64,000 bases of DNA, taken from Pseudonocardia sp. HH130629-09. Lineage in GTDB: Bacteria > Actinomycetota > Actinomycetes > Mycobacteriales > Pseudonocardiaceae. Below the pieces are notes generated by a model. That model searched no databases, was not told the origin of the DNA, and was given only the letters and a program-made list of their open reading frames with translations. Shown here one piece after another: positions 41,847 to 44,306 of the stretch; within the stretch, counting starts at the first letter, position 1; every line of letters begins with the position of its first letter. The position numbers were made by a program, and so were the translations under genes. The stretch spans positions 1,550,001-1,614,000 of the forward strand of contig NZ_CP011868.1 of assembly GCF_001294645.1 (NCBI RefSeq), written 5' to 3'.

Positions 41847-41892
41847 TGTCAACTCAGGTTGACAACCGGGCCGGTGTCAACCTACATTGACA
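41847..41892 (+). promoter_or_regulatory. Two TGTCAA-N6-TTGACA palindromes forming the promoter of the HTH/Clp-N unit
   Basis: TGTCAA-CTCAGG-TTGACA (41847-41864) and TGTCAA-CCTACA-TTGACA (41875-41892) have identical arms and lie 28 bp apart centre to centre. TTGACA of the first (41859-41864) is also a perfect -35, and TACATT (41883-41888) inside the second is an 18-bp-spaced -10. Transcription would begin at about the ATG 41895, so the mRNA is probably leaderless and any protein bound to these sites must block the promoter. Confidence 0.8.
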
Positions 41893-41894
41893 CC

Positions 41895-42110
41895 ATGAGC
41901 GATGCGACGGCAGTGGCCGCGGCGGCGTCCAGCACGGACCCGGCCGTGGGGCTGCGGGCGGTGGTGGCCCTGCGCGAGCTGCAGGAGTCCCTGGAGGAGC
42001 TGCAGGTCACCAACGCCCGCGACCAGGGGTGGTCCTGGCAGCAGATCGCCGACGCGCTGCGGATCAGCCGGCAGGCGGTGCACAAGAAGTACCGCCGGCT
42101 CGGCCTGTAG
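41895..42110 (+). CDS. Small helix-turn-helix protein
   Basis: The 71-aa protein has an Ala-rich start, a helix LRELQESLEELQVTNARDQG and a helix-turn-helix WSWQQIADALRISRQAVHKK with a short basic end. It resembles the N-terminal DNA-binding part of ClpC2-type proteins and other small actinobacterial HTH regulators. ATG 41895 immediately follows two palindromes, which it probably binds. The next gene, 13 bp later, encodes a Clp-N protein. Confidence 0.8.
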   Translation: MSDATAVAAAASSTDPAVGLRAVVALRELQESLEELQVTNARDQGWSWQQIADALRISRQAVHKKYRRLGL

Positions 42111-42123
42111 AGGGGAGACGCAC

Positions 42124-42669
42124 ATGTTCGAACGGTTCACCGACGAGGCCCGCAGGGTCGTCGTCCTGGCCCAGGAGATCGCGCGGACGAGGTACGCGGG
42201 GCGGATCGGGCCGGAGCACCTGCTGCTCGGGGTCCTGCGGTGTCCCGGTACGCCGGGGGAGGAGATCCTCTCCGCGGCCGGGGTCGACGCCCGCACCGTC
42301 ACCGAGGAGCTCGACCGGGTGGACGGCGCGCCCGCTCGCGACGCCGACGCCCTCGCCGCCCTGGGCATCGACCTCGACGCCGTCCGGAACGCGGTGGAGG
42401 CGGGCTTCGGCCCTGGCGCGCTCGACCGACCGCGGCGCGAGCGGTGGCGTGCCGGGCACATCCCGTTTGAGAAGTCGTCGAAGAAGGCGCTCGAGCTGGC
42501 GCTGCGCGAGGCGATCCGGCTGGGCGACCGGTTCATCGGGACCGAGCATGTCCTGCTCGGGCTGCTGCACCCGGACACTGCGGCCTCGCAGGTGCTCGAC
42601 CGGTGCGGGATGACGCTGTACGACACCCGGGAAACCGTGGAACGGCGGCGGCCCCGCCGGGCCGGCTGA
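42124..42669 (+). CDS. Clp N-terminal-domain protein (ClpC2-like, no ATPase)
   Basis: The 181-aa protein consists of two Clp-N repeats (about residues 1-65 and 110-170) related to the N-domain of ClpC1: MFERFTDEARRVVVLAQE, GPEHLLLGVL, then GHIPFEKSSKKALELALRE and IGTEHVLLGLLH. A 40-residue loop separates the repeats. No AAA module is present. The phenylalanines at positions 2 and 115 match those that line the cyclomarin pocket of ClpC1 (recalled as Phe2 and Phe80). AGGGGAG precedes the ATG. With the HTH protein (71 aa) it adds up to about the length of mycobacterial ClpC2. The role as decoy or sensor is inferred. Confidence 0.82.
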   Translation: MFERFTDEARRVVVLAQEIARTRYAGRIGPEHLLLGVLRCPGTPGEEILSAAGVDARTVTEELDRVDGAPARDADALAALGIDLDAVRNAVEAGFGPGALDRPRRERWRAGHIPFEKSSKKALELALREAIRLGDRFIGTEHVLLGLLHPDTAASQVLDRCGMTLYDTRETVERRRPRRAG

Positions 42670-42720: not shown

Positions 42721-43479
42721 TCAGTCGTCGGCGCGGTCCGGGTCGTCCGGGTCCTCCGTCGGGTCCACCCGGGTCTGGGCCGAGCGCACCCCGTCGGTCT
42801 CCGACAGCGCCGCGGCCAGGCCGTTCAGGTCGCCCCGGCCGTCGAGCCGCAGGGTGAGTGCGGCGACCCGACCGCCGTCGTCGGTGAGCGAGCCGCGGTG
42901 CACGGACACCCCGGCGACCGAGAAGCCGGCCGCGGTGCAGCGCTCCAGGACCCGGCGGAGCACGCCGTGGCCGTCGTCGTAGCGGATCCGCAGCACCGGC
43001 GGGCGACGACGGTGCCGCCGCACCACCCGCGCCACCGGCTGCAGACCGCGGGTGACCAGGAAGTGCGCCGCTGTCGCGAGGACGGCCAGCGGGGCCAGGC
43101 CCGCGCCGCACGCCGTCCCGACCGCGGCGGCCAGCCAGATTGTGGCCGCGGTGGTGAGCCCGCGCACCACGTCCTGCCGGACGAAGATCAGTCCGGCGCC
43201 GATGAACCCGATCCCGGACACGATCTGCGCCGCGATCCGGGACGGGTCCAGCGCGACGTGCTCGGTCGTGAGCAGGTCGGCGAAGCCGTACTTGGAGATG
43301 ACCATGAACACCGCCGCGCCGACGCCGACCAGCACGTGCGTGCGCAGTCCGGCGCTCTTCGCCCCGGCCTCGCGTTCCAGACCGATCGCCGTCGTCAGCA
43401 GCAGGGCGAGCAGCACCGGCGGCAGCAGGCTCCACTGCGCCGCCGTCGACCAGAGCGGCTCGGTCCAGGATTCCGACAT
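42721..43479 (-). CDS. MgtC/SapB-family membrane protein
   Basis: The 252-aa protein has five hydrophobic helices with the MgtC/SapB motifs [19 protein letters not shown] and [11 protein letters not shown], followed by a cytoplasmic ACT-like C-terminal domain (about 155-240). MgtC proteins affect adaptation to low Mg2+ and inhibit the F-type ATP synthase in some pathogens. ATG 43479 follows AAGGAGG. The gene is transcribed against trmD, whose start is only 50 bp away. Confidence 0.88.
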
Positions 43480-43529
43480 GCGCGACCTCCTTCGGGGCGG
43501 GGGGACGGGCGCCTGCGACGATCCGCGCC

Positions 43530-44306
43530 GTGCGGATCGACGTCGTGACCATCTTCCCGTCCTACCTGCAACCGTTGCGCGAGGCACTGCTGGGGCGGGC
43601 GATCGACCGCGGGCTGCTGGACGTCGCCGTGCACGACCTGCGGGACTGGACCCACGACGTGCACCAGGCCGTCGACGACTCCCCGTACGGCGGCGGGCCG
43701 GGCATGGTCATGCGCCCCCAGGTGTGGGGCGAGGCCCTCGACGACGTGCTGGCCACCCCGGACCCGCCCGCCCGGCTGGTCGTCCCCACCCCGGCCGGGC
43801 GGCCGTTCACCCAGGCCACCGCGCACGCCTGGACCGCCGAGGAGCGGCTGGTGTTCGCCTGCGGCCGCTACGAGGGCATCGACGAGCGCGTGCTGCTCGA
43901 CGCCCGGGCCCGCGGCATCACCGTCGACGAGGTCTCGATCGGGGACTACGTGCTCGTCGGCGGGGAGGTCGCGGTGTTGGTGATGGTCGAGGCCGTCGCC
44001 CGGCTGCTGCCCGGCGTGCTGGGCAACCCGCGCTCGGCCGCCGAGGACTCCTTCTCCGACGGGTTGCTCGAAGGCCCGTCCTACACCCGTCCCGAGGTGT
44101 GGCGGGGGCTGGCCGTGCCGGAGGTGCTCCGCGGCGGGAACCACGCCGCGATCGCCCGCTGGCGTCGCGACCGGGCCCTGGAACGGACCCGGGACCGGCG
44201 CCCCGACCTGCTCGACGCGCTCGGACCGGACGCCCTGGACGCCGCCGACCGCGCGGTGCTCGCCGCCGGGCGCCCCGACGACGACGCCGACGGCCCCACC
44301 GGCTGA
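43530..44306 (+). CDS. trmD: tRNA (guanine-N1)-methyltransferase
   Basis: TrmD methylates G37 of tRNAs that read CNN codons. The 258-aa protein begins with [15 protein letters not shown] and has [14 protein letters not shown] and the knotted SAM site with [12 protein letters not shown]-like sequence ([18 protein letters not shown], about residues 135-152). The length is slightly more than usual because of an Asp-rich end. GTG 43530 is divergent from mgtC. Confidence 0.96.

What the first reader, a model, noticed from the sequence alone, without database searches (positions are those of the whole stretch)
41847..42669. A split ClpC2-like unit: HTH protein plus double Clp-N protein behind twin palindromes
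A 71-aa HTH protein and a 181-aa ATPase-less Clp-N protein follow two identical-armed TGTCAA-N6-TTGACA sites that contain the -35 and -10. Together they have about the size and order of mycobacterial ClpC2, described (from memory) as a self-repressing protein that binds ClpC1-targeting cyclomarin. Phe2 and Phe115 match pocket residues of ClpC1. The split form would separate DNA binding from antibiotic sensing, acting as a two-part switch and decoy that protects ClpC1.
Basis: partly seen in the sequence, partly recalled or inferred. Interest (0 to 1): 0.75.

Follow-up and report, generated by a model that had tools for sequence, protein, structure and literature searches.

The report
Two-gene ClpC2-like stress repressor operon
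This is a conserved two-gene unit of actinobacteria in which a small DNA-binding protein probably represses itself and a decoy copy of the substrate-binding domain of the ClpC1 protease, a two-protein counterpart of the known one-protein antibiotic sponge ClpC2.

Summary
Two GTCAA-N6-TTGAC palindromes, the only exact ones in the 6.3-Mb genome, carry the promoter of a 71-aa HTH gene and a 181-aa ATPase-less Clp-N gene. It is no oddity of this strain: in 112 units picked by protein similarity 206 of 206 exact palindromes have spacer 6, while in 27 fused ClpC2 units picked the same way 46 of 46 have spacer 7. This genome has both systems. The HTH is homologous to the ClpC2 N-terminal region. HTH residue 64 covaries with operator base 6 in split units, fused units and one HTH-DUF3887 protein, and in distant loci fetched later, where two loci carry a changed residue. 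So the HTH very likely reads the DNA, by inference also in ClpC2, where published work pointed to the other domain. Clp-N keeps the cyclomarin-pocket residues and has one helical hairpin more. The closest known protein is mycobacterial ClpC3 (MSMEG_3761); the neighbouring gene MSMEG_3760 carries twin 16-bp palindromes at the same distances from its start. That Clp-N passes ligand or client occupancy to the HTH (co-repressor titration) is inferred, not shown. New variant of a known kind.

The parts
41847..41864 (.). distal operator TGTCAACTCAGGTTGACA (GTCAA-N6-TTGAC core 41848-41863)
   Evidence: one of only two exact N6 sites in the genome; spacer 6 in 206 of 206 exact sites of 112 protein-selected split units
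41875..41892 (.). proximal operator TGTCAACCTACATTGACA, 2 nt before the ATG
   Evidence: a TANNNT box lies in the proximal, not the distal operator (102 of 114 versus 8 of 114 two-site split units held)
41859..41864 (+). -35 hexamer TTGACA, right arm of the distal operator
   Evidence: sequence
41883..41888 (+). -10 hexamer TACATT inside the proximal operator; predicted start at or next to the ATG (leaderless, inferred)
   Evidence: sequence; layout conserved
41895..42110 (+). HTH repressor gene, 71 aa
   Evidence: HTH_23 4.2e-06; model pLDDT 93.1, helices 2-10, 16-43, 48-55, 59-69; hhalign to ClpC2 N-terminal regions 97.0%, E 9e-11
42036..42101 (+). helix-turn-helix (residues 48-69); recognition helix holds SRQAVHKK
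   Evidence: codon of K64 = 42084-42086, the residue that covaries with operator base 6
42111..42117 (+). likely ribosome-binding site AGGGGAG of the Clp-N gene
   Evidence: sequence, (by eye)
42124..42669 (+). ATPase-less double Clp-N protein gene, 181 aa (ClpC3-like)
   Evidence: Clp_N 2.9e-28; model pLDDT 91.4; best Foldseek match ClpC1 NTD with lassomycin 8ibo, E 7.2e-10, TM 0.65 by query length
42127..42129 (+). codon of Phe2 (ClpC1 F2, cyclomarin pocket)
   Evidence: F in 115 of 126 distinct split Clp-N proteins
42466..42468 (+). codon of Phe115 (ClpC1 F80)
   Evidence: F in 115 of 126
42493..42495 (+). codon of Glu124 (ClpC1 E89)
   Evidence: E in 98 of 126
42253..42408 (+). residues 44-95: four helices (44-51, 56-67, 70-79, 84-95) between the start of repeat 1 and repeat 2, about 28 residues (one hairpin) longer than in ClpC1 or fused ClpC2; G81 and G96 invariant; candidate docking face for the HTH protein (inferred)
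   Evidence: model; alignment gaps: ClpC1 lacks columns 46-73, fused ClpC2 lacks 55-82; G81 and G96 in 126 of 126

Best explanation
It is an autorepressed two-gene stress unit, a two-protein counterpart of ClpC2. A dimer of the HTH protein binds two palindromes that contain the -35 and -10 boxes and shuts off its own leaderless promoter (operator architecture and recognition code shown here by comparison; binding itself inferred). The downstream Clp-N protein mimics the substrate-binding domain of ClpC1 without its motor, so it can hold misfolded clients or ClpC1-binding cyclic peptides away from the protease (inferred from fold, pocket residues and reports on ClpC2 and ClpC3). The likeliest link between the two is co-repressor titration, as with HspR and DnaK (recalled): free Clp-N helps the HTH dimer hold the operators; when Clp-N is filled with clients or peptide the complex lets go and the unit is induced until free Clp-N is restored (inferred). 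My step estimates: HTH is the operator-reading autorepressor 0.93; Clp-N is a ClpC1-NTD-like scavenger 0.7; Clp-N gates the HTH 0.5. The 1-bp difference in spacing probably keeps it apart from the fused ClpC2 circuit in the same cell (inferred).
For: Twin N6 operators at the promoter. Protein-selected units: 206 of 206 exact sites N6 in 112 split units, 46 of 46 N7 in 27 fused units. Operator-only search: of 30 fetched loci each, 23 twin-N6 loci lead to the HTH with Clp-N (truncated in one) and 28 twin-N7 loci to fused ClpC2. Covariation of HTH residue 64 with half-site base 6: K/R 684 C of 764; Q/E 17 G, 8 T, 9 C of 34, from 10 units; in later-fetched distant loci K/R 43 C, 11 T, 0 G of 54, and 5 G, 1 T of 6 in the two loci with E or A. 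HTH homology to the ClpC2 N-terminal region; the D46-R57 dimer salt bridge of ClpC2 (PMC10030653) falls on E31-R42, which are E or D (40 and 9) and R in 49 of 49 rows. Linkage: of 148 HTH units held (repeats included; 125 distinct HTH sequences) 145 had a Clp-N hit downstream; of the other three one has Clp-N cut by the contig end, one a Clp-N start seen by eye, one a truncated Clp-N. Of 20 more distant HTH loci 17 had Clp-N. Pocket residues kept. clpC3 (MSMEG_3761) rises up to 10.9-fold in cold (PMC10454040, passages read).
Against: No experiment on this pair. In M. [quoted passage not shown] Taylor et al. found that two Clp-N arginines (R185/R189) matter for DNA binding by ClpC2, which a pure HTH reader does not explain; of their counterparts R128 is kept in 105 of 126 split proteins but also in ClpC1, and R132 in 38 of 126 against 26 of 29 fused. 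The covariation counts are not independent: 10 Q/E units and 2 E/A loci, from a handful of lineages; 80 of 764 K/R half-sites are not C. Three of 20 distant HTH loci have no Clp-N hit, two of them with twin N6 sites (L294, L295). Of the 30 twin-N6 loci 7 show no such HTH. No contact between the two proteins was modelled. E124 is not E in 28 of 126. Foldseek gave no significant match for the HTH model.
Confidence: 0.62

Rival explanations
1. Simple autorepressor plus passive scavenger: the HTH protein represses alone and sets a ceiling; Clp-N has no part in regulation and induction comes from elsewhere (for example dilution or proteolysis of the HTH protein).
For: The HTH protein keeps the DNA-reading helix and the likely dimer bridge by itself; R132 of Clp-N, one of the two ClpC2 DNA-contact arginine positions, is kept in only 38 of 126; a few HTH loci have N6 sites and no Clp-N hit (L294, L295).
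Against: Clp-N follows the HTH in nearly every unit fetched, and in the fused relative the ligand-binding domain affects DNA binding (PMC10030653).
Confidence: 0.25
2. Degradation switch: the HTH repressor is a ClpC1P substrate protected or delivered by Clp-N; stress or peptide loading of ClpC1 or Clp-N changes repressor half-life.
For: Clp-N resembles the ClpC1 substrate domain; small HTH proteins are often short-lived (general knowledge).
Against: No degron or adaptor evidence was looked for; ClpC2 was reported to work by direct gating (PMC10030653).
Confidence: 0.12
3. Toxin-antitoxin pair: the HTH is a RelI-like antitoxin and Clp-N a toxin.
For: The HTH is weakly similar to RelI (E 0.027), and RelI was proposed to come from ClpC2 (PMC13284704, section 22 read).
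Against: The partner is a Clp-N fold with a conserved ligand pocket; no other Pfam match.
Confidence: 0.02

Closest known systems
ClpC3 of Mycobacterium smegmatis (MSMEG_3761) with the neighbouring gene MSMEG_3760
   Same: MSMEG_3760 carries two 16-bp palindromic motifs at -47 and -19 from its ATG (PMC5660060, section 19 read); the 16-bp window cores start at exactly -47 and -19. ClpC3 is described as a small Clp protein that binds cyclomarin and ecumicin (PMC10864484 passages); induction by these drugs is recalled from Hoi et al. 2023, not held.
   Different: The paper reports two separate transcripts; in the passages read no regulator is assigned to the motif beyond showing that the TetR under study does not bind it.
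ClpC2 (Rv2667; PDB 8ADA, 8AD9; M. smegmatis 8B9O)
   Same: HTH region homologous, double Clp-N domain with the F/F/E pocket, doubled promoter-embedded operators, leaderless start (PMC10030653).
   Different: One fused chain, not two genes; operator GTCAA-N7-TTGAC, not N6; about 28 residues fewer between the two Clp-N repeats. The same genome has its own fused ClpC2.
RelI antitoxin (Rv2664; PDB 9SDC) and HTH-DUF3887 fusions
   Same: Same HTH family (PMC13284704); the own-genome HTH-DUF3887 protein (DUF3887 2.5e-13) also has a palindrome just before its start.
   Different: Partner is a RelS toxin or a fused DUF3887, not Clp-N.
HspR with DnaK (recalled)
   Same: Proposed logic: a chaperone-like product acts as co-repressor and is titrated by clients.
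   Different: Unrelated proteins; co-repression by Clp-N is not shown.

Membership tests
ClpC2 | single chain with N-terminal dimer/HTH region and C-terminal Clp-N | tested here: not met
   two ORFs in different frames, 41895-42110 and 42124-42669
ClpC2 | HTH region homologous to the ClpC2 N-terminal region | tested here: met
   hhalign 97.0%, E 9e-11 over residues 25-68; residues 1-24 not aligned
ClpC2 | cyclomarin pocket residues F, F, E | tested here: met
   F2, F115, E124
ClpC2 | operator CGTCAAC-n5-GTTGACG (GTCAA-N7-TTGAC) | tested here: not met
   N6 in the window and in 206 of 206 exact sites of split units
ClpC2 | represses its own promoter; released by cyclomarin | not testable with these tools
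   needs binding and expression assays
ClpC3 (MSMEG_3761) | stand-alone ATPase-less Clp-N protein | tested here: met
   that ClpC3 is of this kind is from reviews and recall
ClpC3 (MSMEG_3761) | neighbouring gene with twin 16-bp palindromes at -47 and -19 from its ATG | tested here: met
   window cores start at 41848 and 41876, ATG 41895; positions for MSMEG_3760 from PMC5660060
ClpC3 (MSMEG_3761) | sequence orthology to MSMEG_3761 | not tested
RelS-RelI toxin-antitoxin | partner is a RelE/BrnT-like toxin | tested here: not met
   partner is Clp_N 2.9e-28
HspR/DnaK-type co-repression | the chaperone-like product is needed for operator binding | not testable with these tools
   no complex prediction or assay available

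The most novel reading that the evidence does not exclude
Actinobacteria run two parallel proteostasis and antibiotic sensors built from the same parts: a fused one (ClpC2, operator spacing 7) and a split one (HTH plus ClpC3-like Clp-N, spacing 6). They are insulated by one base pair of operator spacing, and a one-residue to one-base recognition code links HTH position 64 with operator base 6. In the split form the Clp-N protein is a diffusible co-repressor titrated by damaged proteins or ClpC1-binding peptides. The DNA-reading part of ClpC2 itself is then the recognition helix in the stretch between its two crystal structures (after residue 72, before residue 94).
Probability: 0.4. Interest if true: 0.78.

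Novelty: new variant of a known kind. Interest (0 to 1): 0.6.

Why it matters
ClpC1 is a drug target, and ClpC2 (by the papers read) and ClpC3 (by reviews) are small proteins that bind drugs aimed at it. This work proposes a regulator and operator for the ClpC3-type protein, offers an owner for a palindrome pair in M. smegmatis that was tested against a TetR and not bound, shows the unit in many actinobacterial genera, and gives a testable recognition code that points to the HTH, not the Clp-N domain, as the DNA reader in ClpC2 too. Having sensor and DNA binder as separate proteins opens the gating step to direct test.

Tried and rejected
Rejected: the 255-aa ORF 41902-42669 as a fused ClpC2-like protein (GC3 0.76 over the HTH part against 0.97 for the HTH frame; among the relatives the HTH lies in differing frames relative to Clp-N). 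Rejected: that 8B9O is the structure of the ClpC3-type protein; it is the C-terminal domain of M. smegmatis ClpC2 (title). Considered and dropped: self-resistance inside antibiotic clusters; a two-motif scan found no NRPS-like motif in 80 of 80 named loci (up to 6 kb each side, less at contig ends), a weak test. The tree of 77 Clp-N rows (40 of the other split sequences and 24 of 29 fused drawn at random) did not settle whether split came from fused or the reverse: the 11 ClpC1 rows and 21 of 24 fused rows form clades, split rows need 3 changes, and three long-branched fused rows (L194, L195, L197) fall in a supported clade with 25 split rows. The fused counts are partly circular (28 of 29 fused units were fetched by the N7 pattern), so one search replaces them; there 27 of the 30 fetched fused loci matched my HTH regex, and the 3 missed (L260, L274, L275) show N7 sites. 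In one search one of 127 distinct split Clp-N proteins (under 151 aa) was dropped. In the distance count my matcher found no start for 36 of 108 units, so I use. In one search the query for the minus-strand neighbour gene found nothing, not even in the window's own locus (wrong frame), so it says nothing. Foldseek gave nothing significant for the HTH model.

Full report
1. Observation. The window carries two palindromes, TGTCAACTCAGGTTGACA (41847-41864) and TGTCAACCTACATTGACA (41875-41892), an HTH ORF (41895-42110, 71 aa) and a Clp-N ORF (42124-42669, 181 aa). TTGACA of the first site and TACATT of the second form a promoter with an 18-bp spacer that puts the start at or next to the ATG. Pfam finds HTH_23 (4.2e-06) and Clp_N (2.9e-28) and no ATPase. 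The exact pattern GTCAA-N6-TTGAC occurs only at these two places in the 6.3-Mb genome; the reversed control pattern occurs nowhere.

2. Two systems in one genome. The genome holds eight Clp_N matches in four proteins: ClpC1 (N-domain read), a larger protein that I take for ClpB, the window protein, and a 242-aa fused protein. The N-terminal part of the fused protein hits Rv2667 (ClpC2, PDB 8ADA) at 1.7e-30, and its C-terminal part hits ClpC2 structures best (2.4e-45 to 1.3e-39). It is a true ClpC2 by sequence, and its own twin operators have spacing 7, ending 1 nt before its ATG. The window pair is a second system.

3. How widespread. Among the 30 best Clp-N hits fetched from 150 genomes of the family, 30 of 30 are split HTH plus Clp-N, and 27 of 30 have two exact N6 sites, two have one and one has none. 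Of 148 HTH units then held (overlapping loci counted again; 125 distinct HTH sequences), 145 have a Clp-N hit; one more is cut by the contig end, one shows a Clp-N start by eye and one a truncated Clp-N. Of 20 more distant HTH loci, 17 have Clp-N. Of 396 phylum genomes, 83 have an HTH match at E <= 1e-8 (this also counts some other HTH proteins of the family) and 42 a fused N-terminal match at E <= 1e-6. Read by hand from the two tables, 18 genomes have both at E <= 1e-20. In 30 of 30 family loci the Clp-N match starts between 1 nt of overlap with and 25 nt after the HTH stop.

4. Operator spacing separates the two systems. In 112 split units chosen by protein similarity, 206 of 206 exact GTCAA-Nx-TTGAC sites (x from 3 to 10 allowed) have x = 6 (two sites in 97 units, one in 12, none in 3). 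In 27 fused units chosen by protein similarity (of 30 fetched), 46 of 46 have x = 7 (two in 21, one in 4, none in 2). Searching by operator alone in 150 family genomes, twin N6 occurs in 89 and twin N7 in 103, with the reversed control at 0 in every genome. Of 30 fetched N6 loci 23 lead to the HTH with Clp-N (truncated in one) and 7 show no such HTH; of 30 N7 loci 28 lead to fused ClpC2 and 2 do not. The -10-like TANNNT box sits in the proximal and not the distal operator: 102 of 114 versus 8 of 114 two-site split units held then, some of them fetched by operator. In the window's genus (Pseudonocardia by its nearest named relatives) the unit lies with rimM and trmD; in the stretches held from other genera these neighbours were not found.

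5. The HTH reads the DNA. Profile comparison matches window HTH residues 25-68 with ClpC2 residues 40-83 (97.0%, E 9e-11). In that register the D46-R57 salt bridge that supports the ClpC2 dimer (PMC10030653, section 7 read) falls on residues 31 and 42: E or D (40 and 9) and R in 49 of 49 rows. Residue 64, in the recognition helix, covaries with the sixth base of the half-site: K or R goes with C (684 of 764 half-sites; 76 T, 3 G, 1 A), Q or E with G or T (25 of 34; C in 9; 10 units). This includes split units, two fused units and the own-genome HTH-DUF3887 protein. Loci fetched afterwards fit: K/R 43 C, 11 T, 0 G of 54; the two loci with E or A 5 G, 1 T of 6; 30 of 30 sites N6 (17 of the 20 loci have a site). 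The counts are inflated by common descent and the changed cases are few, but they come from separate lineages and architectures. The ClpC2 paper assigned DNA binding to the Clp-N domain (R185/R189; section 11 read), from crystal pieces 4-72 and 94-252; the 8ADA chain ends at residue 72, just before the recognition helix. In the split Clp-N proteins the second arginine is kept in 38 of 126 (26 of 29 fused), the first in 105 of 126, but the first is also in ClpC1. A 2026 paper already notes the HTH similarity between RelI and ClpC2 (PMC13284704, section 22 read), so an HTH in ClpC2 is in print.

6. The Clp-N protein. The model (pLDDT 91.4) matches ClpC1 N-domains best (8ibo 7.2e-10; complexes with rufomycin, ecumicin and cyclomarin among the top 10). 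F2 and F115 are each F in 115 of 126 distinct proteins and E124 is E in 98 of 126. Between the repeats the chain is about 28 residues longer than in ClpC1 or fused ClpC2: four helices (44-51, 56-67, 70-79, 84-95), the alignment gap falling at 46-73 against ClpC1 and at 55-82 against fused ClpC2. G81 and G96 there are invariant in 126 of 126. By sequence search no solved structure of this type was seen.

7. Known work. M. smegmatis MSMEG_3761 is named clpC3 and rises up to 10.9-fold in cold (PMC10454040, passages). A review describes ClpC3 as a small Clp protein that cyclomarin and ecumicin bind (PMC10864484, passages); the primary paper (Hoi et al. 2023) is not held and is recalled only. The neighbouring gene MSMEG_3760 has two 16-bp palindromic motifs at -47 and -19 from its ATG, not bound by the TetR under study, with a weakly active promoter (PMC5660060, sections 16 and 19 and passages read). 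The window cores start at exactly -47 and -19. That paper reports MSMEG_3760 and 3761 as separate transcripts, which speaks against a simple operon there. In the listings of my searches I saw no paper that joins such an HTH gene, these operators and ClpC3; most subscription papers are not in that library.

8. Reading. Best: HTH autorepressor plus ClpC1-mimic scavenger, with Clp-N gating the HTH by titration. Shown here: architecture, conservation, operator class, covariation, predicted fold and pocket. Inferred: binding, repression, gating and protection of ClpC1. It works like ClpC2 but is not a member by two tested features (single chain, operator spacing); it is probably the ClpC3 type.

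Noticed in passing
L161 (G000:C1:1403000-1411000), HTH at genome 1406636-1406806: A third HTH of the same family, fused to DUF3887 (2.5e-13), with TGTCAAGATAGACTTGACA a few nt before its GTG: another palindrome-before-start gene.
   Followed up: partly
   Followed up: partly
G000:C1:2032990-2033324 and 2377783-2380003 (L162, L163 fetched, not examined): Two further pairs of GTCAA-N7-TTGAC sites, about 0.3 kb and 2.2 kb apart.
   Followed up: no
L227, L228: Split Clp-N proteins of 272 and 292 aa with a long Gly/Arg-rich linker between the two Clp-N repeats.
   Followed up: no
L194, L195, L197: Fused proteins with ClpC2-type HTH and N7 operators whose Clp-N domains group with split Clp-N rows (long branches): possible domain exchange.
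   Followed up: partly
L169, L174, L175, L177-L179: The twin operators also face a divergent gene encoding a similar protein (VAERPGVGLDG..RPSEDVV-like start), which may share the control region.
   Followed up: no
window 42721-43587 (minus strand): A MgtC-family gene (1.6e-35) on the opposite strand lies between the unit and trmD; rimM and trmD are usual neighbours (recalled), so the unit and this gene sit inside a housekeeping cluster.
   Followed up: partly
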